Part shown: piece after piece, positions 3,117 through 64,000 of the stretch | How positions within the stretch are numbered: position 1 is the stretch's first letter | Layout: each line of letters opens with the position of its first letter | Assembly (NCBI RefSeq): GCF_029784135.1 | Contig: NC_073745.1 | Location: 246,121,993 to 246,185,992 of the forward strand | Direction: 5' to 3' | Length of the DNA: 64,000 nucleotides | DNA from: Toxorhynchites rutilus septentrionalis | Lineage: Eukaryota; Arthropoda; Insecta; Diptera; Culicidae | Notes under the pieces: generated by a model | Told to the model about the DNA's origin: nothing | Databases searched by the model: none | Seen by the model: only the letters and a program-made list of their open reading frames with translations | Translations under genes and position numbers: made by a program

Positions 3117-3322
3117 TCTTTTTAAATGGCACTAACGTTGCTAGAAGAACATCACCATCTCAACGTAGTGTTACTTGCGCATTTTTTCAATCAGTACTTA
3201 GTTGAGATTTCTATGTCAAATACTAGGTCTTGAGTGCATTTGGGTGACAGGTTCGAAAACACATGGGAAGTCGGAAGAAAAGACCCCGACCAGATTGAGA
3301 ATCTTAAACGATGGGACCTAGT
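3117..3322 (-). repeat. tRNA-derived SINE fragment (family 1)
   Basis: Reads like the better preserved family-1 SINE at 27003-27275. The tail motif AATGGCACTAACGTT, the CATCTCAACGTAG block and the TACTTAGTTGAGATTTCTA block occur in the same order. The tRNA-like head is badly decayed. The hAT MITE at 3331 was inserted beside or into it. An old copy. Confidence 0.6.
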
Positions 3323-23764: not shown

Positions 23765-23769
23765 TGTCG

Positions 23770-24098
23770 CACGCATACCAGGAACAATATTATTATAAAA
23801 CTTAGATGAACTTCAATTCTGCCTTCGCAGGGTTTTAGATCAAGGTCTACCCTGTCAGAAAAACATCGGTTCAAAATCTTCTATCGGTAAAAATTAAAAT
23901 AAATTACGATTTAAGATTTTTACCTTTTTCAGTAAAAAATGTTTATTTCTCAGTCGATCAAACATCGTTAAATTAACTCTAGTGACTCTCAACTTCAAAA
24001 TTCATAAAAACTTTATAAGTAGGACTTGTAGAGGATGAGATTTCCTAGAAGTCCTTCGAATACACCATTGTCCTATCTTAAACCGTATGCGGCGCTAG
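23770..24098. repeat. Left terminal inverted repeat of RAG1-like transposon
   Basis: The outer ~230 bp (through CACTAGAGTTAATTTAACG in the other orientation) match the right TIR essentially perfectly. The inner ~90 bp, up to about GGCGCTAGGG, match with scattered differences. Confidence 0.9.
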
Positions 24099-24201
24099 GG
24101 TGAAGAAAAGTTTCTATTGACGAATTTTCGGATAAATTTGGCTTTGAGAAATCATATAATGCAATATACATATAATAGAAAGTATAGTAACAACTTCAAC
24201 T

Positions 24202-24207
24202 TTTATT
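24202..24207 (-). terminator. Poly(A) signal AATAAA
   Basis: AATAAA on the minus strand about 60 bp after the stop codon of the RAG1-like gene, still inside the transposon and before its left TIR. Suitable position for 3' end formation. Confidence 0.5.
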
Positions 24208-24267
24208 TTGAAAGAATATAACAGAATAGAAAATATGTAAACATGGGTTCATTAACAAAAAAACTGC

Positions 24268-26284
24268 CTAAATATGGCTACTGTTATATGCCACCACAGC
24301 GCTTAGAAGTCTCTGCGAATATTTCGCGTGCATTTCTGGTACTTTAGAATTCTCCCAGGTTGCAGCAAAATCACTGTGGATGGCCTCTATCGTCTGCTCC
24401 GATGATCGTGAGAAGCCTTCACCAGCATGTTCACAATGTTCACTTATGTGAAACTTGGTTATGTGAAGTTTAGGCGTGATGGGCAGGTTTGCTAATATCC
24501 AGCTCTCACAAAATTTGTCAATGCAGGATTGATATCCTTCCATCAAATCAGTGCCGAAACAGGCATCCAACATATCCTGCAGGTTTTCTAGGACCGAAAA
24601 ATAAGAAAGTAATCCTTCATTCTTCAAAACTGAACGCTTTGCAACTAAGTAGCGACAGCGACGTCCAGTGAATCCGAACTGGGCGTGGCGTGATGTGTTC
24701 GCTGCTTTGGCCCAAGCGTCAGCCGATTCAGGATGGTTTGCTGAAATGTGGTCGTATATAGCATTCGTCAGTCCCAGAAACAGATGAAGAGATGGCGGCG
24801 GACATCCATAAACAATACTTGTACTTGCTTCCCCGTATAAAATAGGATGATGAACGCAATTGTAATAATCCTTCGCTTCTTTATCTTTCCCCCCTGACGC
24901 CAACCACGAATCAGCACAACTCTTCACAAATCCGATTGTTCGAGTGACTCCTTTAGTGGCACTCAACGAATTTTTATGCACTGTGCAATAAGCACAAGGA
25001 TGTGAAGAGCTGTTTGCCATTACTCCTGCCAGCATGTTGATGACTTTCAAATCACCTTGAATAACAATGCGAAAGCTAAATTAATTAAACAAAAGGTATT
25101 TAAATGTAACATACCTGCTACAATTGCGTTTAGATGGTTGAGCTGCAATTGGTTGATCCATATTTCGTGTATGTTTTCAAAATTTTCTTGGAAATTCGGC
25201 GCTAAGGCAATCACAAATGTGCGACGGACACCAGAATCTTTGAACTTGGAGTTCGTCGCTTGATCTGCATTACATTCTTCAATGCTCAGCGTAATTTTTA
25301 GTGAACCTTTTCCTCCGTCAATTCCGATCTTGTAACGCACTTCTTCAACATTTCGTCTGGCTTTGATATACTTTATAAGCCCAGGTACACTCGTGCATAA
25401 TACAATTGGACGCGATGATGAACTACGGGACTTTCCCTTCGTGGTGACTATATGTAATGACTTAACTTCATAAAAGTCGTCAAGTTCACGTACACGATTT
25501 CGGAGCGCTGGTTCAAGTCCAGATTGGATAGCTTTCCGATTGCTCCTACGAATATTCTGAGCGAGTTTGATGGTCTAGTAAAAAAAAGACACGACGAAAT
25601 GACAATTTTGGGATCGGAAGATCAAAGTAAACAGTGCATGAACCTACCTTCTTCATACTTAAGTTCAAATCTGACTTCCAGGCCAGAACTTCCTCATGTG
25701 TAATTGGTTTTGGATTCTCGTTTTGCTCAGATGCACTAACAATTTTTACTCGAGTTGGTTTACCGTATTGGTTAGACAGAGATACATGATCTGCCTCTGC
25801 AGATGATTTTTCCCGAATGACTTTAGCAGTCTCCAGCTATGCTCTCAATATTTTGTAGCTTTGTTCTCTTTGTGCATGTATGGCGCTTTCCACGGGAAAT
25901 AGCTGTAAGACAGATGGCACAAACCTTCGAAGGAATCGTTAAACTTTGTACCTTGCTTTGGCGTTTAGGGAAAATGGTCTGTCGTGCGACTTTACAAAGA
26001 TTGCAATTGCCATGGTCAGATGAACTTCTGGTTTCAATTTATTGATCTTCGGAGTAATCGTGTACTGAAAAACCCACTGGAGTTTTGCTTTTCGAGCACC
26101 TATACACCATGGCATAACAGCTTGAGCAGAGCACTTTGGGGAACATCGAGACTTTATCGCAATAGGAGAAGATGAAATTTTGAATAATTATAGATTTAAT
26201 CATTTTGGAAATAGGTTTCGCGGTAGCGGCCTTCTTGAAGCACAAAAGGCAAACTTTAATTCGATTTTCTTCGTGATTTCTCAT
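24268..26284 (-). pseudogene. RAG1-N-like zinc domain plus DDE transposase, three exons, broken
   Basis: Exons on the minus strand are 26284-25648, 25574-25115 and 25055-24268. The introns (25647-25575 and 25114-25056; 73 and 59 bp) have GT...AG ends and keep frame. Total about 628 codons. Exon 1 has zinc pairs in the order VCLLC, LCSSCYAM, then NCNLCKVARQT, KVCAIC and GKRHTC. This recalls the RAG1 N-terminal region (C..C, CHNCWSIM, CDICNTARR) and the molluscan N-RAG-TP transposon. Exons 2-3 look like an RNase H-fold transposase: IDGGKGSLK (candidate first Asp, codon 25319-25317), GDLKVIN (Asp 25053-25051, at the exon junction) followed by PCAYC, PKLHITKFH, and SSEQTIEAIHSDF (Glu 24399-24397), which resembles the RAG1 segment around its catalytic Glu. 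Two lesions break it: TAA at 26041-26039 and a one-base-type frameshift near 25830. The N-terminal start is the best supported ATG, but an upstream exon is possible. Confidence 0.7.
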
Positions 26285-26891
26285 GATTTCCGAAATGTTT
26301 GGCAAACACCAACTAGGAAAGACCAACTAGGTAAACAGCAAAACTAGGAAAGAAATGGCGTGCTATAGAACAAGCTACTAGCAGATCAACACAATACAAT
26401 GAGTTAATAGCATATGTGTGCGTGAGATGAAAGCAACTCAGATACACAATCATCATGTTATGCGATCCAATAGAGATTCTTATGCCTGATTTCACGAACA
26501 CTTTTGTCCAGTGTGTAATACGCACATAAGAAAATTAGAATAAGAAGATCGTGTTACGTCTATCGGTCATATCACGCATACTACACAGTGAATCCGGCAA
26601 TGTTACAACTACTAAAGCACGTATCCGACAATCTCACACGTGCTCATGGAAATCTCTATAGAGTGAAGCGATGTATTGCATATTATGGTGGAAGGAACTC
26701 ATTTGTCATTTGATTCGGTGTATTGCTATATCATTCCAGTTGAAGCTGAGTAATTTAAAAGCCTTTTGTACACCCTACCAGAACAAGAAGCAGAAGGTTC
26801 GTTGAAAGTAGATCGGTCGAAAAATCTCCCAACCAAGATATCGAAAGATAGTTAACTAAAGTGCTTCATGTACTGTGGTATATGGTTTCTA

Positions 26892-27502
26892 GCATCGTAT
26901 ACGTTAGAGATATGACAATGGTGTATTCGAACGACTTCTAGGAAATCTCATCCTCTACAAGTCCTACTTATAAAGTTTTTATGAATTTTGAAGTTGAGAG
27001 TCCCCCCCTTGAATGGCGTTAACGTTCCCTGTGGAACTTTTGCCATCTCAACGTATGCATTAACTAGCGTCATTTATTAATACTTAGTTGAGATTTTCTA
27101 AGCCAAATAACACGCCTTGAATGTATTCCGAGGGGCAAGCTCTAGAATACGCGTGGTCACAGTGCAAGTCGAAGGAAATTTCTTTGACGAAAAAATCCCC
27201 CGGCCAGAACGGGAATCGAACCCGAACACCCGGCATGATAATGTGAGACGCTAACCACTCGGCCACGGGTGCACCGAAGTTGAGAGTCACTAGAGTTAAT
27301 TTAACGATGTTTGATCGACTGAGAAATAAACATTTTTTACTGAAAAAGGTAAAAATCTTAAATCGTAATTTATTTTAATTTTTACCGATAGAAGATTTTG
27401 AACCGATGTTTTTCTGACAGGGTAGACCTTGATCTAAAACCCTGCGAAGGCAGAATTGAAGTTCATCTAAGTTTTATAATAATATTGTTCCTGGTATGCT
27501 TG
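26892..27502. repeat. Right terminal inverted repeat, split by a SINE
   Basis: The inverted counterpart of 23770-24098, interrupted at 27003-27275 by a SINE with its own target duplication. Without that insert it is about 325 bp. Confidence 0.9.
27003..27275 (-). repeat. tRNA-derived SINE (family 1), in the transposon TIR
   Basis: Read on the minus strand it starts GGTGCACCCGTGGCCGAGTG (A-box-like), followed by GGGTTCGATTCCCG (B-box), then a body with TTGAGATGGCAAAAG and a tail at TTCAAGGGGGG. A 13-bp target duplication GAAGTTGAGAGTC flanks it (26990-27002 and 27276-27288). It looks like a tRNA gene at first glance, but the sequence after the head and the TSD show a retroposed SINE. Older copies lie at 3117-3322 and 37570-37740. 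Confidence 0.9.
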
Positions 27503-27507
27503 TGTCG

Positions 27508-27689: not shown

Positions 27690-28690
27690 CATTGACGAGT
27701 ATCGACTTTCTCTTCCTCACAACCCTTCCATGTGCAAGCGATGAGATCAGGCTTTAGCACGCGAGCTTGGGATTGGCTCTTCCTCTTTTCTTTCATAAAA
27801 TTTTGAGAGGTTTTCAGACTTCCTGTGCGCGCGCTGCTAAATTTCGAGAGATGAGTCTTGATTTTCTCCTCCTCACAACCCCTTCATGTGCAAGCGATGA
27901 GACCGTGCTTTAGCACACGAGCCTGGGTTCAGCTCCTTCTCTTCTCTTTCGTAAAATATTGAGATGTGCTCAAGAATATTTCGTTGCACCTCAACATGAG
28001 TGATGCACATGTGTTGGTGCTCGCGAGACTTTCTCGTGTACCTGCCTCAAAGTGACATTTGGTGCTGTCGGGGGAAGTTGTGCTTCTGGTGTTAAAATTT
28101 TAATCTTCGTAATATGGCACGTAGAACAATTAGTGATGAAGAACTGTTTCACATAAATATCGCTGCTAAAGTCATCCAATCAATTCATTCATTTGTTGCA
28201 CACAGCTCGCAATGATTGTGTGAGATATGAGGCTGAATAGGGCAAAGCACATTGTCTTTTCTACGTGCTGTGTGAGATCTCAGAAGGCCTAACCAAATGT
28301 CATTTTGAGGCAGGTACACGAGAATGTCTCGCGAGCACTAATGCACGAGCATCTCTTCGTTTACACAACACATGTGCATCGTTCGCATCGAAACGCGACG
28401 AGACATTTCCTGAACACATCCCAAAATTTTACGTAAGAGAAGAGAAAGAGACAATCCTAAGCTCGCGTGCTAAAGCCCGGTCTCATCGCTTGCACATGGA
28501 AGGGATGTGAGGAAGAGAAAATCAATACTCGACTCTCGGAATTTCAGCGCGCACAGGAAGTCTGCTCGCTCAGCTGCCTTCTGACTCGCTCATTTATTGC
28601 AGACAGCTCCCAATGACTTTGTGAGATGCGAGACTGGATAACGCAAAGCACACTGTCTCTTTTGCGTGCTGTGCGAGATCTCGGAAAGTC
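27690..28690. repeat. Complex foldback cluster
   Basis: A ~110-bp unit containing ATGTGCAAGCGATGAGA and GCTTTAGCAC occurs three times: 27708-27810 and 27858-27978 direct, 28419-28530 inverted. The second and third belong to longer inverted arms (27815-28075 and 28300-28560) that include GACTTCCTGTGCGCGCG and CTCGCGAGAC...GTGTACCTGCCTCA with their inverses. The ~220-bp loop ends in a segment (TGTGAGATATGAGGC...GTGCTGTGTGAGATCTC) that is repeated directly after the right arm at 28590-28685. A short frame starting at ATG 28114 in the loop is unrecognised. No TSD found. Confidence 0.75.
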
Positions 28691-29874
28691 TAGTTTCCAC
28701 ACTGTGGAGATTCTAAGAATGGTTGATTTTATGCTTTGTCAAATAGATAAGGTAGTGGTGGAATAAATATATAATCGCCTGGAGTCGCACTGTTTGTAAA
28801 TATATTTTATATTTATTCAAAGCTGAAGGGAGCTTCTGTGAATTCAGTAGTACGTTTGGATTTCTATTGATGAGATGACGTTGTTTTGAATTATAGAAGT
28901 GTTAAGCTTTCTCAATTAATTCGCTTCGAGCATTGGAAAAAAAACAATTTGAAAAACTCAACTAAACAACGCCTTGAGAAATACCATTCGCTAGCTAGAT
29001 GACTGATTAATCGTCAATGGCTTATTTGTGATTTTTTCAATCGTTCACTTAATTTTCGAAATTTTAATCATTGTTTCCGGGTTGAGAGTTGTGTTCTTCG
29101 GTGGAAAATCGTAGATGAAAACTTGTTTACTTCTTTGGCCTCCGCCGCCTTCACATAGTTGTATCGGTTCCGATTTTCTGTCTTCTGAGATGTTGGAGAT
29201 ATAATTTTGCTAAGGGATACTGAAAAACTACTCGGATATTAAAGAAGATCAGTATTTCAGTTTCAGTGCAACGAGCAATCAACAGTAGGGGAAGACGAGA
29301 TAAGACGGCCACCCTAAGCATAGAGTACAATTAAACACTATGCATACAAAGTTGAGACATTTCATTATGTCAGCATCGATCTTTAGGATGTTTTCCGCAA
29401 TCACGTTGGCTTCCAAAAGTTTTCCTTTTCATTTCATAATGTTATATGATAAATTTAAAAAGGTATGAAAAAGGTGCTACTAAAATCATGACGGGTCAAG
29501 TTGGCCACCACTAAGGGTGAGATGGCAATATGAAATGACTTGTGAATCTAGGCGTATAGAGGATGATTGTATCCGGCAAAATTGTGCTACATATCAAGGT
29601 CGTTGTATTTTAGATCAAGCGTGACAAGAGTGGGAGGTGTTATTTTTCCTGAATTACCTATAACGTGCTTAATGTGCAACCCTTGCGAAATTATCATAAT
29701 TAAAAATTATTATATTTGGCACCTGAAAAATCATCAAATTTTTATGAATGCACTTTGAGTTATTCAACCAACAATTCAAGTGGTGTGATGTTCTCATTTA
29801 ATTCGTCAATTTATGGCAAATCACATCTCTTACAATAGAGGCCACCTTGCCCCCGCTATGAGTCAAGTAAAAGT
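28691..29874. other. Intergenic with MITE-like pieces
   Basis: No gene recognised. At 29285 CAGTAGGGGAAGACGA starts a MITE-like stretch with GGCCACC words. A similar inverted motif (TCGTCTTCCCCTGTC) lies at 35548, beyond the BEL element, so the retrotransposon may sit inside an older MITE. Confidence 0.45.
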
Positions 29875-30604: not shown

Positions 30605-32086
30605 CCAAGGGATAAAAGGATTGGACAATTGTGGAACTGTGCATTGTGCCCGCGGTATTCTCTTATCGGGCGCCATTGGAACGGATAAGAAAAGGCGAAG
30701 GATAAATGGGTCGCCATAGAAACGCGAACTTGAAGACGTTGAATAGTGGATCGCCATAGTGGACCGTGGAAATAAAGACGGTTTTATCCCGCGGAACAAT
30801 CCCTTTGTGAACGATAAATGAAAAATTGTTTAACGCTACCATAATTGTGGGCTTGCGTAATTATTCGGACTGAATTTGTGAGACTTTACTGTGGACCTTC
30901 GAATCGAGCAGACGTGTTCGTTTGAACTAATTGTTAATTGTGGTGAACGTTTATTACTACCTTGTGCTGTGGACGAGTCACTTTATGTTGGAAGGAGCCT
31001 GTTGCATACTATTTTAAACTCAAGAATAGGAGATTGGAGGCAACCGGTCATTTTCATTCGGACATCAGACCTAAGCGGACGTTTTACGTGGGCATATGCG
31101 GAGCTGGCTGCTACACTTATCAGTGCGGAGCATTTTTTCTGAGGTAAATGCTATATTACTAGTGTATGTTCAGCTGAAGCTTGGTCAAATAGCATACTAA
31201 CACCCTATTTCGACGGTATTCTGTTGCATTCTATTGGAGCGACCTGGAATCGCACTCTGCTGGAACGTGTGGCCAACAACCTGGATTTTGGTTTTGCTTA
31301 CTGCTGTTGGACGGTTGGTGAGCCATCTCGGTGCAATTATCAGCGGCAGTATTTCCACAAAGGAAACATCCCAAGGGAGGTTTCAATGGCGGACACATCT
31401 CTGGTTGGCGCAGTTTCAAGCTAGACCGGTCGTGGGCGGCAAGAAGAGGAAGCGGAGTAATTTATTTGGTTCGTAAATTATAAAATCCTCTTCATTGACC
31501 TGACATACAATTTTGGGAAAACGTGATTGTGTTTAATTGGAAATCTGAGCAAATAATATGGAAGTGCTTATATCTCGACTGGAAATTTGTATGAAATGTC
31601 TACATTAATTGGTGAAGCGATTATCTACGTGGATTGAAAGTTGAAGTCGGAATTTGATGTTGCCGTTGATTGTTCAACGGAAAATTTGGCAATACGAATC
31701 TGTTCGATAGTTTGAGATCCATTCAACTTGAGCGGAAATATTTGTTGCGGATAATTATAGCTGTCCAGGTGAGACACTTAGTATATGGTCCGCCGGGCCT
31801 GGACTCGCTTGGGTACTACAAATTGGTGTTTTTAATCCTCTTTCTTCGGCGCTGAACATTTTTGAGCAAAATTCCCTTTCCATCACGCAATTGGATGCTC
31901 CATTGGTATGATACCACATTGTTGAGGAAGTTTGGTTAGCTGGTAGCTTATCCAGGACGAGTTCTTAATCAATTTGGGGCATCATTAACCGTTTCGTCAG
32001 GTAAAGCTTACAGTATATGCCTGGCGAAGCTAGGCCTTTTCGCTGAATGCTACACCGTTGTTTTCATTGCTGTATTTCGAGACACC
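30605..32086 (+). other. 5' leader of BEL element 1
   Basis: About 1.5 kb between primer site and gag. It contains three copies of a leader motif (CAGGT-like donor, spacer, then GTATATG and a GAAGC-like end) with ATGs at 31166, 31785 and 32017; the same motif surrounds the gag start in element 2. Short open frames here are not conserved proteins. Confidence 0.6.
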
Positions 32087-34123
32087 ATGCCTGCTCCAGC
32101 CGGATCTGTCATCACAAGGCCACCATCACTGAGGTTGTTGTTCGCCAAACTGAAGGACATCCAGTCGTCTGCTGGTGACATTCGACGTTTCATCGAGAAC
32201 TTTCGTGGTGACACCAGTACATCCAAGGTGGAGATTCGATTGGAGAAGCTGGATGAACTGTGGGAAAAATTCGGAAATACAGTGGTGGAGATCAGGGCCC
32301 AGGATGACTACGAAGAGTCAGCAGATCTTGAAAAGGAAAGGGAGGAATTCAGCGATAGGTATTATGAGGCAAAATCATTTCTCGTGGATAGGCTAAAGGA
32401 AAGGGAAACCAGAACTTCGCTTGAACAGCCTGTCAGGAACTTCGAGGTGTCGATGTCGAGCACATTTGAACATGTGCGGCTTCCCCAAATTAAACTCCAA
32501 ACCTTCAGTGGGGACATCGACGAGTGGTTAAGCTTCAGGGACTTGTTCAAGTCGCTCATCCACAACAAAACAGACCTGCCGGATGTTGAGAAGCTCCACT
32601 ACTTAAAGGGTTGCCTGCAAGGAGAGCCGAAGAGTTTGATTGATCCACTGCAGATAACGGCAGGGAATTATCAAATCGCGTGGGATTGCTTGCTGAAGAG
32701 ATATAATAACAGCAAGCAGCTTAAGAAGAGGCAAATTCAAGCGTTGATGAAGCTGCCAACGCTGACGAGGGAATCATCTGGTGAATTACACACACTAGTT
32801 GAGGGATTGGAGAGAACGATCAAGATATTGGACCAGATCGTACAGCCTGACGACTATAAGGATCTCCTCTTGATCAACATTGTTACAACGCGCCTCGACC
32901 CAGTGACTCGCAGAGGTTGGGAGGAGTTTACGGCTACTAAGGAGCAGGAAACCTATAGAGATTTGATCGATTTTCTCCAGCAGCGAGTTCAGGTGCTAGA
33001 TTCTTTACCTGCAAGGGCGGTTGAGGGAAGAAATCTGCAGCGTTCACCACTACAGGGAAGACCGAAACCAGCTGTTCTGAAAACGAGTTTTAACGTGGTT
33101 CAAGGGTCCGAGTTCCGCTGTTTCGTTTGTACAGGAAAACATTGGCTGAATCAGTGTGAGGTGTTCCGGAAAATGGAGATTGTAGAACAGGAGAAAATAT
33201 TACGAAAACATAACCTTTGTCGCAATTGTTTTCGAAAGGGTCATCGTGCGATGAATTGCTCATCTAAAATATCGTGCAGAAGATGCAAGGGTCGACATCA
33301 CACGCTGATGTGTTTCAGGACGGAGGAAAATATTCGGCAGATGGTTACGGCCGGCCCAAGTGGCTCAAATATGGTACAGTCTGAGGATAATCAGAATGCA
33401 TCAACATCAGCTTCATCGCCAGCGGTAAATTTGTCAGCAAATATGGTTTTGCCAACTGGGACAGCTTCCAATTCACCGTCACAAACTTTGCTGGCAACTG
33501 TTGTGGTAGTTTTAGAGGACGATGGTGGAAATAGGATTACTGCCCGTGCTCTCCTAGACTCTGGTTCGGAGAGTAATTTTATTTCGGTACGATTGAGTCA
33601 ACGTTTGAACGTGAATCGGGAAATGGTTGATATTCCTGTCATGGGAATTGACAAAACCGCTTCTAGAGTGAAGCAAAGGATACATGCGACAGTTAGATCT
33701 CGAAATTCAAATTTTGCTGAAGAAATGGGCTTCTTAGTACTTCCCAAAATGGACGTGAAACTTCCGACGGAACCAGTTAATATTACAACGTGGACAACTC
33801 CAGAAGGAATACGACTGGCGGATCCGTTATTCAGCGTACCAATGCCCGTGGATATCGTATTTGGTATAGAAGCATTCTTCAACTGTTTCGAGTCTGGCAG
33901 GAAGATTGGATTAGGGGAGAAATTACTCACATTGCATGAAACGGTTTTCGGTTGGGTAGTGTGTGGAGGTTTCGAATTTCAAGATCGGGTTACGACCACA
34001 ATCTGCAACATGGCTACAAGGAACAACTGGAGGTCAAATATAAATCGGAAGTTTAATGGAAATCGATTGATAGGAATGTCACGTAGCAGCGATTGGTTCA
34101 GTCGAACAGTCGAAGGGATTTAA
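32087..34123 (+). CDS. BEL/Pao Gag-protease polyprotein (678 aa)
   Basis: The protein forms the retrotransposon's capsid-like particle and carries a retropepsin-type aspartic protease. A coiled-coil-like N-terminal region precedes the BEL Gag core near residues 130-280 (QTFSGDIDEWLSFRDLF; DUF1759-like). Zinc-knuckle sequence lies near 377-408 (CRNCFRKGHRAMNC and CRRC..RHHTLMC). The protease motif ALLDSGSESNFIS is near residue 487, and the Peptidase_A17-like region reaches about 640 (TVFGWVVCGG). The last ~35 residues no longer match element 2 and lead to a stop, where the reverse transcriptase would begin. The ORF has no interruption. The start at ATG 32087 (GACACC context) is favoured over the leader motif ATG at 32017. 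Gag is clearly homologous to element 2 but well diverged, so they are different families. Confidence 0.9.
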   Translation: MPAPAGSVITRPPSLRLLFAKLKDIQSSAGDIRRFIENFRGDTSTSKVEIRLEKLDELWEKFGNTVVEIRAQDDYEESADLEKEREEFSDRYYEAKSFLVDRLKERETRTSLEQPVRNFEVSMSSTFEHVRLPQIKLQTFSGDIDEWLSFRDLFKSLIHNKTDLPDVEKLHYLKGCLQGEPKSLIDPLQITAGNYQIAWDCLLKRYNNSKQLKKRQIQALMKLPTLTRESSGELHTLVEGLERTIKILDQIVQPDDYKDLLLINIVTTRLDPVTRRGWEEFTATKEQETYRDLIDFLQQRVQVLDSLPARAVEGRNLQRSPLQGRPKPAVLKTSFNVVQGSEFRCFVCTGKHWLNQCEVFRKMEIVEQEKILRKHNLCRNCFRKGHRAMNCSSKISCRRCKGRHHTLMCFRTEENIRQMVTAGPSGSNMVQSEDNQNASTSASSPAVNLSANMVLPTGTASNSPSQTLLATVVVVLEDDGGNRITARALLDSGSESNFISVRLSQRLNVNREMVDIPVMGIDKTASRVKQRIHATVRSRNSNFAEEMGFLVLPKMDVKLPTEPVNITTWTTPEGIRLADPLFSVPMPVDIVFGIEAFFNCFESGRKIGLGEKLLTLHETVFGWVVCGGFEFQDRVTTTICNMATRNNWRSNINRKFNGNRLIGMSRSSDWFSRTVEGI

Positions 34124-42028: not shown

Positions 42029-42766
42029 TGTGATATATTTGGAGTAATTCTCGATGTCGGCGAGCGCCATACCAGGAATGAAAAGGGTATTCATTGGATC
42101 GAATTAGCTGCTAACAAAACCATCTTCGTAAACAATTGCTATTTGTTCGGAGTATTGGCAACCATTGTTCATGCTGCAAGTGGATTTATGCTGACTGATT
42201 TTTCAAATTGAACGACGGACGATACACTGGACCAGCAAGGATTTTGCTTCGGCAGCTCGTGACGTCACGCAACATAACGTTTCCTACTGAAGGAGGTGGA
42301 TTCTGTAGATGGATTACTGTTGGAAATAATCATTGAAGGACGAAGAGGAGGCGCATGCATACTTTTCCCAGGTTAGTGATAAGTATATGTCTACCGAAGC
42401 ATCAGAAAATACACAAATTAAAACAAAATCATCCTCTTCGATTATTTGCCAACATCCCTGTATACCCTGGGTTTTGAGACTAAGAACATCAATTTCACTG
42501 GAACATATGCATGTTACATTGTTGCGGCCTATTACGTTTTATGCTTAGGATGATGCTGTAGGTTTCTCCAGGTGAGCTACCACAGTATATGCCCAGCCGA
42601 AGGTTATTATTGAATACTACATATATATATGTTTGTCCTCCACGCGACTCATATTCCCATACGAGTGATTCTGGAATTGTTTAAGCCGACGTTTTATTCT
42701 GAGCGAACATCGCAAGGTCAAATTGGAGCGAAATAAAATAGTTTGTCAGGTCAGTGAGGACAGTAT
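42029..42766 (+). other. 5' leader of BEL element 2
   Basis: Non-coding leader with two decoy copies of the gag-start motif: AAGTATATGTCTACCGAAGC (ATG 42387) and CAGTATATGCCCAGCCGAAG (ATG 42589), before the true one at 42767. Each is preceded by CAGGT, a splice-donor-like word. Confidence 0.65.
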
Positions 42767-45700
42767 ATGTCCACCGAAGCAAGGAACGTTACCGAAATCT
42801 ACACCATAATCGATGACATTTGGCGTTATGTACAGGAGTTCAAAGAGGATGCTACAGCTTCACAAGTGGAAGTGCGTCTGCAGAATATCGACGATTTATG
42901 GAAGGATTTCCGAAGTATTCTGATCGAAATTGTATCCCACGACGATTTCGAAGGAGATGATGACGCGTACGAAAAGGACAGACTGGAATTCAGTGATCGG
43001 TACTTCCAAGCTAAATCTTTCCTAATGGAAAAACTGAAGAAAAGGATGGAAAACGAACAACTAAATCAATCCAACAGAGGCGATACTACGATGATGGCTA
43101 CTACTGAACATGTTCGTCTACCCCAGATTCAACTGCAGACCTTCAGCGGAGATATCGATGAGTGGTTGAGTTTCCGTGACCTTTTCACCTCACTTATCCA
43201 TTGGAAGGAGGATTTACCGGAGGTGGAAAAGTTTCATTATTTGAAAGGATGTCTCCAAGGTGAACCGAAAACCCTGATTGATCCCTTACCAATAACAAAG
43301 GCCAACTATCAGGTAGCTTGGGAGTTATTGATGACTCGTTACAATGATAGCAAACAACTGAGAAAACGCCAGATACAGTCACTATTCAATTTGCCTGCGC
43401 TTTCGAGAGAGTCGTTGATTGATCTCCATAGTCTCCTGGAAGGATTCGAGAGAACTGTTTCCACTTTAGATCAGATAGTGAAGCCGAACGATTACAAGGA
43501 TCTTCTCCTCATCCATATCTTAACCTCGCGTCTAGATCCGGTTACTCGCAGAGCCTGGGAGGAGTTTTCGTCAGCGTTGGAGCAGGATTCGTTGAAGGAA
43601 CTAACAGATTTTCTCCAACGGCGAATACGAGTTCTGCAATCTCTGCCACCACTGACTGTAGACAGGAATGTAAATCAACAGTTGGGTCCACAAAAGTCAA
43701 AATCAGCGGTAGTTAGGACTAGCTTTGGTAGTTTTCAAGCAACTAAGGGTAGATGCATTGCATGTTCGTCAGACCACCTGTTATACCAATGTGATGTTTT
43801 CCAAGGCTTGTCTGTTGCTGATAGGGATTCGTTATTGCGAAAACACAATTTATGCAGAAACTGTTTTCGTCGGGGACACCAGGCGAAGGAGTGTTATTCC
43901 AATTTTTCTTGTCGGAACTGTAAGGAGCGTCACCATACGTTAGTATGTTTCAAAACAGAGCGGCCAGGTAGTCCAAAGGTTATACCGTCTTCCGTCGCAT
44001 CAACGTCCAAGGATTCTCCAACTCCCATATCCAGCAAGTCCGCTACCAACCTCCAAGTGTCTGGTTCAGCTCAGCTGTGCACGTCTCAAGTCCTACTTGC
44101 AACCGCTGTTGTCATCGTTGAGGATGACTGTGGTAATCGTTTTCACGCTCGTGCTCTTCTAGATTCAGGATCGGAGAGTAATTTTATTACTGAACGGTTG
44201 AGTCAGCGTCTGAAGGTGTCTCGAGAGAAGGTGGATTTCTCCATCATTGGAATTGGACAGGCATCGACAAGGGTCCATCAAAGAATAACCGCTGTGGTAC
44301 GCTCACGGGTAGCCAAATTTTCACGAAGTATGAAGTTTCTGGTACTATCGAAGGTGACAGCAAATTTACCAACTAGCACCATAAATACAAACTGTTGGAA
44401 AATCCCAGATGGAGTAGAACTAGCGGACCCTTCATTCTGCATATCTCAAGGAGTAGACCTGGTTCTTGGGATCGAGTTGTTCTTCGAGTTCTTCGAAACT
44501 GGGAGGAAGATTTCTCTTGGAGACCAATTGCCCTTCCTGAAGGATTCCGTTTTCGGATGGATTGTGTGTGGTGGCCAATCAACCATGGATCAATCAACGA
44601 AGATCAACTGTAACGTGTCCGCATCCGAGAGGTTAGAAGATTTGATTGCCAAATTTTGGTCATGTGAGGAAATTGACTTAGTCAACTGCTATTCTCCCGA
44701 GGAAACTCGATGTGAATCCCAATTTATACAATCCGTACATCGAGAAGCAAACGGTCGTTACACTTTAGCGTTACCAATTAAGGTAGAAGCCGTACATAAA
44801 TTAGGCAAATCCAAGGATATCGCAATGCGGCGCCTGTTGGGAACGGAAAGGAGACTTGCAAAGGATACCGGTTTAAGAGAGCAATACGTGCATTTCATGG
44901 AGGAATACCTTCAACTCGGTCATATGCAAAACATAACCGGAATCGAATCTACTCACGATTCAACCGAACGATGCTACCTACCGCACCATCCAGTAGTAAA
45001 GGAAGCCAGTACTACTACCAAGGTTCGAGTGGTTTTCGACGCGTCCTGTAAAACATCCTCTGGAGTAGCTTTAAATGACGTGTTGTTGGTGGGGCCCGTT
45101 ATTCAAGAGGATCTACGCTCGATAATTCTTCGTTGTAGGACCAAGCAATTTATGTTAGCTACTGATGTTGAAAAGATGTTCCGACAAATTCAAATTCGCC
45201 CAGAGGACCGGCACTACCAATCCATCCTTTGGCGCCCATCACCGAGTCATGAGATTAATACCTATCAACTGAACACAGTCACCTACGGTACCAAACCGGC
45301 CCCGTTCCTAGCAACTCGAACGCTCAAACAACTGGCTATGGATGAAGGGATCAATTTTCCGCTCGCAGCCAAGGTCGTGGAGGAAGATACGTACATGGAC
45401 GACATCATAACTGGTACAAATTCCAAGGAAGAGGCGTTGCAGCTTCGAATCCAATTGAACGACATGTTAGACAGAGGAGGATTTAGACTTCGGAAATGGG
45501 CTTCAAATTGTCCGGAAATTCTAAACGGGATTCCTGAGGAGAATCTGGCAATACGGGACTCTATTGGAATCAATCTGAACCATGAGGCGATGGTGAAGAC
45601 CTTAGGATTGAATTGGTTACCTAAAACCGATGAATTTATGGTATCGTTTAATATTTCTCCACTGGATAGAACCAAACCTATCACTAAACGACAAGTTTTA

Positions 45701-48004
45701 TCAATCATCGCTATGTTGTTTGATCCATTAGGACTGATTGGAGCCGTCATAACAACAGCCAAGGTTTTCATGCAGCAAATATGGACGCTGCGCTGCAGTG
45801 ATAATCAACGATTTGATTGGGATCAGTCACTTCCCGCAACGGTGGGTGAGAGCTGGCACAAATTTCATGATCAGCTTCCCTGTTTGAACCACATAAGGAT
45901 AGAACGATGCGTTATTATTTCAGAAGCAGTTTCCGTTCAACTTCATTGTTTCTCAGATGCTTCAGAAAGAGCGTATGGGGGGTGCATATATGTCCGTAGC
46001 GAGAATTCGGAAGGGAAGATAAATGTGCGATTGCTGATGTCAAGGTCAAAGGTTGCTCCTCTAAAATGCCAGTCTATACCTCGATTGGAGCTGTGTGGAG
46101 CCCTATTAACCGCTCAATTATACGAGAAGGCCGTACAAGCAACTCGATTGAACGTGCCAACCTACTTTTGGACTGATTCAACGTGTGTGGTGCTCTGGAT
46201 TCGAGCAGTTCCAACTACATGGACAACTTTTGTTGCCAACAGGGTAGCCAAGATTCAGAGAATTACAGAAGGGTGTGAATGGAGACATGTGTCAGGAAGT
46301 CAAAACCCGGCAGATATTATATCGAGAGGAATTTTCCCAAAGGACATTCAAGAGAACGAAATTTGGTGGTATGGTCCTCGTTGGTTATCAGTGTCATCAA
46401 TTGAATGGCCTTTTTTGTCGGATAACACCCGGCGTGAAGAAGTGGATGAGGAACGTAGGAGTAAGGTCGTATCTATCCCTGCAACGAGTTCACCCATCAT
46501 CGAATTCAACGAATGGTATTTCGAGAAATTTACTTCGTATTCAGATTTATTGCGATGTACGGTTATTTGGTTGCGCTTAATGGAATATTTAGCTAAATCG
46601 CATGATAAGCAAACAGGGTTCATTACGACGGCTGAGTTGAACCGAGCTGAACAAGTACTAGTACGATGCGTCCAGAAAGAAGTTTTTGATGAAGAATGGA
46701 AGGCGTTGCTCAAGGGAGATGTGGTTCCGCGAAGGTCACCTCTCCGGTGGTTCAATCCATATATCTCTAAGGATCAGCTATTAAGAGTTGGCGGACGGCT
46801 GAGTAATTCTTCGGAGTCGTATGATTATAAGCATCCTATGGTATTACCATCCCGGCATCGGTTTACGCGGATGTTATTCAAACATCACCATGAACGTCTA
46901 CTTCACGCAGGGCCACAACTTCTGCTGGCTGCCGTTAGACTTCGTTTCTGGCCTCTAGGCGGACGGAGTGTTGCTAAACAGATTGTGCACCAGTGTATTA
47001 GATGCTTCCGATCCAAACCATCACTTGCTCAGCAGTTTATGGGTGATTTACCAACTCCACGAATTACGATATCCAGACCATTTTCTAAAACAGGAATTGA
47101 CTATTTTGGACCAGTTTATATCCGCCCCGGCCCCCGACGCACCGCGGTTAAGGCTTATGTTTCACTGTTTGTCTGTTTGTGCACCAAGGCTGTACATTTG
47201 GAGCTTGTGAGTGACTTATCAACGGATCGCTTTATACAAGCCTTACGCAGATTCATGGCGCGCAGAGGAAAATGCACCGATTTATATTCTGATAACGGCA
47301 CGAATTTTGTCGGAGCTAGGAACAAACTCCAAGAGTTCATACGTTTACTGCAGAACAAACAACACAACGACAAGGTAGCTAAAATGACCGCAGATGAAGG
47401 TGTTCAGTGGCACTTCAATCCACCAAGCGCTCCGCACTTTGGAGGACTTTGGGAGGCAGCAGTTCGATCAGCAAAATATCATTTATTGAGGGTAATTGGA
47501 GAAAACCCCGTTTCTATAGAAGACATGACAACTTTGCTAGCCCAGGTGGAAGCTTGTCTGAATTCCAGACCTATTACTCCCCTTTCAAACGACCCATCCG
47601 ATTTGCAGCCACTAACTCCTGCGCATTTTCTGATCGGCTCGTCATTACAAGAATTGCCAGAACCAAATTTGCTAGAGATTCGAACCAATCGGCTGCGTCA
47701 ATGGCAGCTCATTCAACAAAATTTGCAGAATTTTTGGAAAAGATGGCAGAGAGAGTATTTGTGCCAACTTCAAGGACGCTCAAAACGCTGGAAACCACCG
47801 ATACCTGTTCAAGTTGGCAAACTTGTCATAATAAAGGATGATAATATGCCTCCAATGCGTTGGAAGATGGGAAGGATCGAAGAGGTACATCCGGGAAAGG
47901 ATGGGATAGTGCGAGTTGTGACCTTGAAAACGGCAGCAGGTTCGTTACGTAGGCCGGTCGAAAAAGTTTGTTTTTTGCCAGAATCAACAGGAAGAATTGA
48001 TTAG
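42767..48004 (+). CDS. BEL/Pao Gag-Pol polyprotein (1745 aa), intact
   Basis: One frame encodes every retrotransposon function. Gag core is near residues 118-270 (QTFSGDIDEWLSFRDLF). Zinc knuckles near 362-392 (CRNCFRRGHQAKEC). Aspartic protease LLDSGSESNF near 465. Reverse transcriptase runs from VVFDASCKT (~755) with TYMDD at ~875-879. RNase H from CFSDASERAYGG (~1060) with PRLELCGALL, WTDSTCVV and SGSQNPAD. The integrase H2C2 zinc region is at ~1370-1412. The integrase core has Asp 1445 (GIDYFGP), Asp 1509 (YSDNGTNF) and Glu 1563 (GGLWEAAV). The C-terminus (~1640-1745) is the DUF5641-like tail of BEL elements. The ATG is within the third leader motif. No stop, frameshift or missing catalytic residue is visible, so it is probably functional. 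Confidence 0.96.
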   Translation: MSTEARNVTEIYTIIDDIWRYVQEFKEDATASQVEVRLQNIDDLWKDFRSILIEIVSHDDFEGDDDAYEKDRLEFSDRYFQAKSFLMEKLKKRMENEQLNQSNRGDTTMMATTEHVRLPQIQLQTFSGDIDEWLSFRDLFTSLIHWKEDLPEVEKFHYLKGCLQGEPKTLIDPLPITKANYQVAWELLMTRYNDSKQLRKRQIQSLFNLPALSRESLIDLHSLLEGFERTVSTLDQIVKPNDYKDLLLIHILTSRLDPVTRRAWEEFSSALEQDSLKELTDFLQRRIRVLQSLPPLTVDRNVNQQLGPQKSKSAVVRTSFGSFQATKGRCIACSSDHLLYQCDVFQGLSVADRDSLLRKHNLCRNCFRRGHQAKECYSNFSCRNCKERHHTLVCFKTERPGSPKVIPSSVASTSKDSPTPISSKSATNLQVSGSAQLCTSQVLLATAVVIVEDDCGNRFHARALLDSGSESNFITERLSQRLKVSREKVDFSIIGIGQASTRVHQRITAVVRSRVAKFSRSMKFLVLSKVTANLPTSTINTNCWKIPDGVELADPSFCISQGVDLVLGIELFFEFFETGRKISLGDQLPFLKDSVFGWIVCGGQSTMDQSTKINCNVSASERLEDLIAKFWSCEEIDLVNCYSPEETRCESQFIQSVHREANGRYTLALPIKVEAVHKLGKSKDIAMRRLLGTERRLAKDTGLREQYVHFMEEYLQLGHMQNITGIESTHDSTERCYLPHHPVVKEASTTTKVRVVFDASCKTSSGVALNDVLLVGPVIQEDLRSIILRCRTKQFMLATDVEKMFRQIQIRPEDRHYQSILWRPSPSHEINTYQLNTVTYGTKPAPFLATRTLKQLAMDEGINFPLAAKVVEEDTYMDDIITGTNSKEEALQLRIQLNDMLDRGGFRLRKWASNCPEILNGIPEENLAIRDSIGINLNHEAMVKTLGLNWLPKTDEFMVSFNISPLDRTKPITKRQVLSIIAMLFDPLGLIGAVITTAKVFMQQIWTLRCSDNQRFDWDQSLPATVGESWHKFHDQLPCLNHIRIERCVIISEAVSVQLHCFSDASERAYGGCIYVRSENSEGKINVRLLMSRSKVAPLKCQSIPRLELCGALLTAQLYEKAVQATRLNVPTYFWTDSTCVVLWIRAVPTTWTTFVANRVAKIQRITEGCEWRHVSGSQNPADIISRGIFPKDIQENEIWWYGPRWLSVSSIEWPFLSDNTRREEVDEERRSKVVSIPATSSPIIEFNEWYFEKFTSYSDLLRCTVIWLRLMEYLAKSHDKQTGFITTAELNRAEQVLVRCVQKEVFDEEWKALLKGDVVPRRSPLRWFNPYISKDQLLRVGGRLSNSSESYDYKHPMVLPSRHRFTRMLFKHHHERLLHAGPQLLLAAVRLRFWPLGGRSVAKQIVHQCIRCFRSKPSLAQQFMGDLPTPRITISRPFSKTGIDYFGPVYIRPGPRRTAVKAYVSLFVCLCTKAVHLELVSDLSTDRFIQALRRFMARRGKCTDLYSDNGTNFVGARNKLQEFIRLLQNKQHNDKVAKMTADEGVQWHFNPPSAPHFGGLWEAAVRSAKYHLLRVIGENPVSIEDMTTLLAQVEACLNSRPITPLSNDPSDLQPLTPAHFLIGSSLQELPEPNLLEIRTNRLRQWQLIQQNLQNFWKRWQREYLCQLQGRSKRWKPPIPVQVGKLVIIKDDNMPPMRWKMGRIEEVHPGKDGIVRVVTLKTAAGSLRRPVEKVCFLPESTGRID

Positions 48005-62353: not shown

Positions 62354-64000
62354 TTTCGCAATGCGTTTGAAAACCTCGGCCTTAGTGGCGTTAACCAGCA
62401 ACCAACTCATTTTTATCCTGGTGGATGTTCGTTAATTGATTTGCTGATTACTATTTAATAACTGTGATCTTATTCTCAATTTCAATCAAGTTTCTGCACC
62501 TGGATTTTCGAAGCAGGATGTACTTTTTTCATCAATAAACATTTCTCGTGAAACTTTAATTGAACCTTCATTTTTCCGTGATTATGGACGTATTAATTTC
62601 GGTTCCTTGCAAAATGCCATGAACTCATTGGATTGGAGCTCTCTATACAGCATGAACGATTCAGATCTAGCAACTGACTTCTTAAATTCACGTCTATTAG
62701 ACCTTTCTGATAGGTTCGTCCCTGTACGTGTTTTAAGACAAAGACGTACGACTTTTCAGATGAATGATGAAATACTTAATACAATGATTTCCAGGAATAT
62801 AGCATTCAGACAATGGTTAACTACTAGAAATGCTTCTGACCACTCACACTATAAAAGACTTCGCAATCGTGTTACCCATCTGATCAATCAAGCCAAGTCG
62901 GATTATCTATCTTCGGTATTTAGGACTACTGATTCTAACAAAGTACTTTGGAAAAAAATTGAAAGAGATGAATGTTTCCTACTCTGCCATCAATAGTGAA
63001 CAACTCTCCAGCACGTGTGAGGAGATCAATGAACATTTTAGTGAAAATTTCACGCGTGATGATTAACCTTTGCCGATTCTTCCGATGAATGACAATGAGT
63101 TAAAATTCAACATGTGTGATGAGTTAGATGTGTCTTCTGCAATTTTTTCCATATCTTCTAATGCTGTTGGGCTAGATGGGTTACCTTTGAAGTTTGTAAA
63201 GCTAATCTTGCCATATGTCATTTCTCCTATTACTTACGTCTTCAACCTGATTATTTCAACTTCGAAATACCCTCGTATATGGAAATCTTCGAAAGTTATA
63301 CCAATTCGTAAACACCCCAGAGGTTACGATTTGAATAACCTTCGTGCGATAAGTATTCTTTGCTCCCTATCGAAAGCATTTGAGAAAACTGTTAAAATCC
63401 AAATTCAATCATTCATTAATCGCTTTGATTTGATCAGTCCCTACCAATCGGGTTTACGTTCAAATCATAGCACTACTACAGCACTTCTAAAAGTTCATGA
63501 TGCCATTCATCGAACCATTGAAAAGAAAGGAACAGCATTCCTGATACTCATTGATTTTTCCAGAGCATTCGACAGGGTTTCTCACGTAAAACTTCTAAAA
63601 AATTGTCCAGTCAATTTGGATTCTCTAGTGCTGCCGTGTCTCTCATTGAATCATACCTGTCTCGAAGGACTCATGTCGTAGAAAGTGACGGTAAGCTTTC
63701 AAGTCAAACTAACATACTATCAGGTGTTCCCCAAGGATCGGTCCTTGGACCATTATAATTTTCATTGTTCATTAATGACTTACCGGCCGTGCTAAGAGTG
63801 TGCATGATACACATGTTTGCTGATGACGTACATCTATACTTCAACGCTCTCAATTTATCTGTAGTTGAGATGTCTCAACTTATCAATGCTGACCTAAAAC
63901 AAGTTTTCATTTGGTCGAAGTGTAATCTTCTCCCCATCAACACGTCTAAAACTAAAGTAATGTTTATAACTCGACAGCAGAGGCCTTCAAGTTTGCCAAA
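62354..64000 (+). pseudogene. 5'-truncated LINE: endonuclease end and reverse transcriptase
   Basis: Starts inside the endonuclease domain (NQQPTHFYPGGCSLIDLLIT, then a frame change and PGFSKQDVLF). It continues through the linker (frame 62607-62996) and into the reverse transcriptase (63070-63681: NAVGLDGLPLKFVK, YDLNNLRAISILCSLSKAFE, PYQSGLRSNHSTTTALLKVH, LIDFSRAFDRVSH). Another frame then gives LSGVPQGSVLGPL, a TAG, FSLFINDLP and MFADDVHLYF. At least four lesions (stops or frameshifts near 62446, 62965, 63063, 63590 and TAG near 63756) make it inactive. It runs off the window. The clade (Jockey/CR1-like) is uncertain. Confidence 0.85.

What the first reader, a model, noticed from the sequence alone, without database searches (positions are those of the whole stretch)
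23770..27502. Mosquito DNA transposon whose protein joins a RAG1-N-like zinc module to a RAG1-type DDE core
In the sequence, spaced zinc pairs VCLLC, LCSSCYAM and NCNLCKVARQT appear in one exon upstream of a transposase-like region with IDGGKGS, GDLKVIN..PCAYC and SSEQTIEAIHSDF. From established knowledge, vertebrate RAG1 has C..C, FCHNCW and CDICNTARR in its N-terminal part and a catalytic Glu in a 'SEGNE' context, and Transib/RAG1, hAT and CMC share an RNase H fold with an inserted C..C. N-RAG-TP of molluscs and Chapaev-type elements are the nearest described parallels I know. The inference is that this is an insect member of a transposon lineage combining both halves of RAG1-like architecture, relevant to where the RAG1 N-terminal region came from.
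Basis: partly seen in the sequence, partly recalled or inferred. Interest (0 to 1): 0.9.

Follow-up and report, generated by a model that had tools for sequence, protein, structure and literature searches.

The report
Mosquito transposon with RAG1-type catalytic core
This is a slightly damaged cut-and-paste jumping gene from a mosquito-like genome whose cutting enzyme has the same core layout as RAG1, the enzyme that rearranges our antibody genes; a claimed match of its front zinc region to RAG1 is only suggestive, and the overall combination resembles jumping genes already described.

Summary
23770-27502 is a complete DNA transposon: inverted repeats of about 330 bp, a 5-bp target-site duplication (TGTCG), and a three-exon transposase gene on the minus strand (628 aa) broken by one in-frame stop and one frameshift. 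A SINE-like insertion later split its right repeat.

The catalytic half looks RAG1-type. RAG1's eight active-site and zinc positions have counterparts, several at equal spacing; those in exon 3 are conserved in its relatives. A model of exon 3 (pLDDT 69) retrieves RAG1 or RAG1-like chains as the first 36 Foldseek rows (35 RAG1, 1 RAGL), best E 1.2e-3. Sequence methods alone find no link.

The zinc half is not proven RAG1-like: Cys pairs in the same order, but 17 of 3000 shuffles reach the score, Pfam's RAG1 N-terminal model is silent, and BLAST prefers another register. "RAG1-N-like (Chapa) finger plus RAG1-type core" is already published for Chapaev and TransibSU.

The element fits the CMCT clade. 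Chapaev membership fails on duplication length and one terminus, in the single copy available; the search for other copies in its genome did not complete. New member of a known kind, lineage unresolved.

The parts
23765..23769 (.). Left copy of the 5-bp target-site duplication, TGTCG
   Evidence: Sequence; identical to 27503-27507. One copy of the element only.
23770..24098 (+). Left terminal inverted repeat, starting CACGCATACCAGG
   Evidence: 227-nt arm with one mismatch plus an inner arm of 100-115 nt at 93-96%.
24268..25055 (-). Coding exon 3: second Asp (D368), C387/C390, H457, H564/H569, E590 and stop codon
   Evidence: 13 relatives; fold match to RAG1/Transib.
25056..25114 (-). Intron 2, 59 nt, GT..AG
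   Evidence: P0013, a named gene model, reads LDAVVTGDLK across the junction that the window's exons form as LNAIVAGDLK; P0002, P0003, P0010 and P0012 leave the match just before GDLK.
25115..25574 (-). Coding exon 2 with first catalytic Asp (D299 in IDGGKG)
   Evidence: No relative of this exon was found, so D299 is not tested for conservation.
25575..25647 (-). Intron 1, 73 nt, GT..AG
25648..26284 (-). Coding exon 1: zinc region with four Cys pairs (from residues 12, 53, 94, 122 of the read-through protein) and linker; damaged by an in-frame TAA at 26041-26039 and a frame change near 25836
26889..27502 (-). Right terminal inverted repeat, interrupted by the insertion at 27003-27275; outer end reads CAAGCATACCAGG on the minus strand
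27003..27275 (-). Later insertion, 273 bp, flanked by a 13-bp duplication GAAGTTGAGAGTC (26990-27002 and 27276-27288): SINE-like
   Evidence: for the duplication; a related piece at 3122-3240, 72.6% over 124 columns. tRNA-likeness is my reading of the letters; ARAGORN and Rfam report nothing in the window.
27503..27507 (.). Right copy of the 5-bp target-site duplication, TGTCG
   Evidence: Sequence.

Best explanation
It is a recently inserted, now inactive copy of a cut-and-paste DNA transposon of the CMCT clade (EnSpm/CACTA, Mirage, Chapaev, Transib, RAG1). Shown here: its complete anatomy, a three-exon transposase with RAG1's active-site and zinc-site order and partly equal spacing, a RAG1/Transib-like fold for the last exon, and a family of relatives. 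Inferred: the transposase binds the long inverted repeats, uses D299/D368/E590 as a two-metal DDE centre, with C387/C390/H564/H569 holding a structural zinc inside the RNase H domain as in RAG1, cuts at CA..TG ends and inserts with a 5-bp stagger. By analogy with RAG1 and Transib, excision probably leaves hairpins on the flanking DNA. The N-terminal zinc region most likely serves DNA binding or oligomerisation; that it is the Chapa/RAG1-N finger is plausible (about even odds) but unproven.
Against: No sequence-only search links it to RAG1 or Transib: no transposase or RAG family in Pfam, two unrelated PDB rows for the A2 profile, hhalign against two RAG1 sequences 0.1%, and core-to-core alignment reached by 315 of 2000 shuffles. 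The model is of middling confidence (pLDDT 69; under 50 at residues 1-18, 20-39 and 223-230, which hold D368, the Cys pair and E590), covers exon 3 only, and no Foldseek match is under E 0.001. D1-D2 is 69 residues against 108 in RAG1. Termini and TSD rest on one copy.
Confidence: 0.85

Rival explanations
1. It is an ordinary Chapaev (or Chapaev3) element: Chapa zinc finger plus Chapaev transposase. The 5-bp duplication and the CAA terminus would then be a chance match and a mutation in this one copy.
For: C(2)C, LH and H(4)H, the three motifs called characteristic of Chapaev, are all present and conserved. Chapaev is reported among the mosquitoes of one study only in Culicinae (PMC7728395, passage), and the one named relative is from Aedes albopictus. 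Chapa is described in Chapaev and Chapaev3. Two-exon transposases occur in some Chapaev3.
Against: Chapaev is described with generally 3-4 bp duplications and invariable CAC..GTG ends, Chapaev3 with TWA; this copy has TGTCG and CAC..TTG. No Chapaev sequence was available to compare. LH and H(4)H also occur in RAG1, so they do not discriminate.
Confidence: 0.45
2. It is a separate CMCT lineage nearer Transib/RAG1L, keeping an N-terminal RAG1-like zinc region but without RAG2L.
For: 5-bp duplication and a CAC left end as in Transib and RAGL (PMC7204232, passages); fold ranking RAG1 first; Cys pairs in RAG1 order. Weak sequence likeness is no bar: HzTransib itself scores only E 0.069 against RAG1 by phmmer.
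Against: No sequence-level similarity to RAG1, whereas the amphioxus RAG1L scores E 1.2e-60 against RAG1. Right end is CAA. D1-D2 and LH-H distances are much shorter than in RAG1.
Confidence: 0.25
3. The catalytic core is RAG1-type but the zinc region is an unrelated insect zinc module, for example ZAD-like, acquired independently. (This can be true together with either rival above.)
For: zf-AD aligns residues 11-64 to profile 1-59 of 75, but far under cut-off (E 9.6, 2 and 0.24 with ever shorter queries); PF12560 RAG1_imp_bd is not listed for exon 1; BLAST puts its best alignment in another register, the window's fourth pair on RAG1's third, E 0.025.
Against: LCSSCYAM/FCHDCWSIM and NCNLCKVAR/SCDICFTAH are alike and in order. 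17 of 3000 (mouse) and 7 of 3000 (recalled human-like) full shuffles, and 86 and 28 of 3000 with Cys kept in place, reach the score.
Confidence: 0.3
4. The DDE part belongs to an unrelated superfamily such as hAT, P or Kolobok.
Confidence: 0.05

Closest known systems
Chapaev / Chapaev3 DNA transposons
   Same: C(2)C, LH, H(4)H motifs; a zinc-rich N-terminal region; reported from culicine mosquitoes (PMC4079192 and PMC7728395, passages; PMC4411706, section 6)
   Different: 5-bp rather than 3-4 bp duplication; right terminus CAA rather than CAC; sequence relation untested
Transib transposons
   Different: Canonical Transib has no identifiable domain other than the core (PMC4411706); no sequence-level match
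RAGL / TransibSU / ProtoRAG transposons and vertebrate RAG1
   Same: Order and partly equal spacing of active-site and zinc residues, core fold, 5-bp duplication, N-terminal Cys pairs in the same order
   Different: No second ORF of 100 aa or more that could be RAG2L; no RING family hit; shorter core; no significant sequence match
N-RAG-TP (Aplysia)
   Same: Proposed RAG1-N-like zinc sequence in a mobile element
   Different: Described as composed entirely of RAG1-N-like sequence (PMC8355894, one passage); this element carries a catalytic core

Membership tests
[quoted passage not shown]
   definition from PMC12730594
CMCT clade (EnSpm, Mirage, Chapaev, Transib, RAG1) | CA..TG termini in most cases and a 2-5 bp TSD | tested here: met
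   CA..TG with TGTCG, one copy
Chapaev | C(2)C, LH and H(4)H motifs | tested here: met
   definition
Chapaev | Generally 3-4 bp target-site duplication | tested here: not met
   5-bp TGTCG in the single copy available
Chapaev | CAC and GTG at the two ends | tested here: not met
   CAC at left, TTG at right in the single copy
Chapaev | Chapa zinc domain | tested here: inconclusive
   No Chapa profile at hand; RAG1-N comparison weak
Chapaev | Grouping with Chapaev transposases in a tree | not tested
   No Chapaev sequences were at hand
Transib / RAG1 core | RAG1/Transib fold with DDE and zinc residues in matching order | tested here: met
   (exon 3 model only, pLDDT 69; exon 2 with the first D was not modelled)
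Transib / RAG1 core | Recognisable sequence similarity to RAG1 or Transib | tested here: not met
   note that HzTransib against RAG1 gives only E 0.069
Transib / RAG1 core | 5-bp target-site duplication | tested here: met
   one copy
RAGL transposon | A RAG2L (kelch) gene beside RAG1L | tested here: not met
   Judged by ORFs only: no further ORF of 100 aa or more in 23770-27502
RAG1 N-terminal region | Match to the RAG1 N-terminal profile PF12560 | tested here: not met
   Mouse RAG1-N hits it at 1.9e-84; exon 1 does not appear at E up to 10, though HMMER's filters drop most matches above 0.1
hAT, P, Kolobok | Best fold match to that superfamily | tested here: inconclusive

The most novel reading that the evidence does not exclude
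An insect lineage of RAG1-type transposons, distinct from both Chapaev and Transib/RAGL, that keeps an N-terminal RAG1-like zinc region, a RAG1-like DDE/zinc core and 5-bp staggered insertion without RAG2, so that both halves of RAG1 were joined outside the RAGL lineage and can be compared in insects.
Probability: 0.2. Interest if true: 0.75.

Novelty: new member of a known kind. Interest (0 to 1): 0.45.

Why it matters
It adds an insect family with a RAG1-type catalytic core to the CMCT clade, with relatives that may include intact copies. If its zinc region proves to be the Chapa/RAG1-N finger, it would help to test whether finger and core were already joined in the common ancestor of Chapaev, Transib and RAG1, as PMC4411706 proposes. 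If not, it is one more divergent mosquito transposon.

Tried and rejected
Protein searches with the 628-aa read-through product found nothing (7995 candidates scored, none at E 0.01; 1504 candidates, none at E 0.1); the exon-3 search then found 13 of 234 candidates. P0013 was dropped before building A2, because its C-terminal part is unrelated sequence. Searches of viral contigs with exon 3, A2, exon 2 and exon 1 and of genome contigs with exon 3 and A2 gave pattern matches but no relative. PHROGs: 0 families for the 3 proteins given, the window's and 2 of 13 relatives. Single-sequence folding of exon 3 failed (pLDDT 36). Fold search in the viral library (50 of 142 rows shown) gave nothing I trust: best E 0.13; highest probability 0.69, a 185-aa Sylvanvirus protein at E 0.44. 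Pfam matches of single A2 members (YAcAr 2 of 13, best E 5.5e-4; TFA2_E-tether 3 of 13, best E 0.059; Cloacin_immun and GUCT 1 each) were not followed; I take them for chance. Weak Pfam rows for the read-through product (Glyco_hydro_44 E 0.14, Antimicrobial25, zf-AD) and for pieces of exon 1 (Antimicrobial25 best E 0.014, DZR_2, ZZ_ADA2) are below cut-off. PDB searches with exon 3, the read-through product and exon 1 gave unrelated rows only. The last line printed took the flanks three bases too far out and was not used. hAT was not among the VIA-align rows shown; that excludes nothing. Literature searches (listings with starts of abstracts) showed me no report of a mosquito element joining both RAG1 halves; they cover only open-licence PubMed Central papers, I read passages of few, and Repbase was not searchable. 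PMC1131882 is not held.

Full report
What is there. Inverted repeats begin at 23770 and 27502. They read CACGCATACCAGG and CAAGCATACCAGG from the outside, differ at one base in the first 227, and run on for about another 100 bases at 93-96% identity. Both sides are flanked by TGTCG, a 5-bp duplication; with the ends fixed, I reckon 1 in 1024 for that by accident. The right repeat carries a 273-bp insertion with a 13-bp duplication of its own and tRNA-like letters by my reading, though ARAGORN and Rfam list nothing. A related piece lies at 3122-3240, so I take it for a SINE that came later.

The gene. On the minus strand an ATG at 26284 opens a gene with two short GT-AG introns, 73 and 59 nt. 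Read through one in-frame stop and one frame change, both in exon 1, it gives 628 residues. Nearly identical inverted repeats and only two lesions suggest a young insertion (inference).

Relatives. Exon 3 finds 13 proteins among 234 candidates. Twelve come from Logan or ENA assemblies without names; one is 'uncharacterized protein LOC115259282 [Aedes albopictus]'. They are 40-82% identical. Intron 2 has support: that named gene model reads LDAVVTGDLK where the window's joined exons read LNAIVAGDLK, and four others (P0002, P0003, P0010, P0012) leave the match just before GDLK. No relatives of exons 1 or 2 were found.

The catalytic core. I compared positions with mouse RAG1, whose letters were taken from PDB alignments. 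RAG1 D600, D708, C727, C730, H795, H937, H942, E962 have counterparts D299, D368, C387, C390, H457, H564, H569, E590. Successive distances, RAG1/window, are 108/69, 19/19, 3/3, 65/67, 142/107, 5/5, 20/21. In A2 the LH, both His and the Glu are invariant in 13 of 13 rows; both Cys are present in 12 of 13 with one gap; D368 is present in the 5 of 13 rows that reach it. D299 could not be tested. I chose these residues by eye before counting, so the agreement is descriptive, not a calibrated test.

Results against. No sequence method links the core to RAG1: Pfam gives no transposase or RAG family, the A2 profile finds only two unrelated PDB chains, hhalign against two RAG1 sequences gives 0.1%, and pairwise alignment of the cores is matched by 315 of 2000 shuffles. 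The relation is at the level of fold and motif only. As a yardstick, with RAG1 as query the amphioxus RAG1L scores E 1.2e-60 and HzTransib only 0.069, so silence by sequence is what one would expect of anything beyond Transib's distance.

The zinc region. Exon 1 has four Cys pairs, starting at residues 12, 53, 94 and 122; RAG1 has three in the stretch compared. The best local alignment joins the second and third pairs to RAG1's second and third. Of 3000 full shuffles, 17 reach the mouse score and 7 the recalled human-like score; with Cys fixed, 86 and 28 do; in a first run 9 of 2000 did. Against a longer RAG1 stretch that includes the RING finger, 242 of 2000 shuffles reach it. PF12560 does not appear at E up to 10 while zf-AD does, far below cut-off. 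BLAST with composition adjustment prefers another register, the fourth pair on RAG1's third, at E 0.025. No PDB chain of RAG1 is found by exon 1, although the N-terminal chain 21wb_A is in that library. I call this suggestive and put homology at about even odds.

Comparison. PMC4411706 (passages; section 6) says that Chapaev, Chapaev3 and TransibSU carry the RAG1-N-like Chapa finger (truncated in TransibSU), two Chapaev subgroups also a RING. PMC4079192 (passages) defines Chapaev by C(2)C, LH, H(4)H, generally 3-4 bp duplications and CAC..GTG. PMC7728395 (passages) finds Chapaev only in the three culicine mosquitoes of its set. PMC7204232 (passages) describes protostome RAGL with 5-bp duplications and N-terminal fingers. 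PMC12730594 (passages) gives the CMCT marks. PMC8355894 (one passage) describes N-RAG-TP. The element meets the CMCT marks. It meets Chapaev's protein motifs but not its duplication length or one terminus; it meets Transib's duplication length but shows no sequence similarity. Since all terminal evidence is from one copy, I do not assign a superfamily.

Verdict. The novelty is smaller than claimed, because the combination is already known, and the zinc part remains unproven.

Noticed in passing
27694-28738: Right beside the element lies a dense foldback: 138-nt and 122-nt inverted arms (84-89%) plus direct repeats of 123 and 103 nt at 81-82%; probably a foldback or MITE-like element.
   Followed up: no
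42758-48004: A 1748-aa open frame of a Pao/BEL-type retrotransposon (Peptidase_A17, RVT_1, integrase zinc domain, DUF1759). A 727-aa frame with DUF1759 lies at 31940-34123.
   Followed up: partly
63067-63681: Reverse transcriptase fragment (RVT_1, E 2e-10).
   Followed up: no
25648-26284 (exon 1), residues 11-64 of the read-through protein: Weak likeness to the insect zf-AD (ZAD) domain, under cut-off. By eye RAG1's first two Cys pairs also look ZAD-like, but mouse RAG1-N did not list zf-AD.
   Followed up: partly
P0013 (Aedes albopictus LOC115259282): A predicted gene that fuses the exon-3 transposase piece to unrelated sequence that reads to me like an integrase C-terminal part; probably a mis-joined gene model or a nested insertion.
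   Followed up: no
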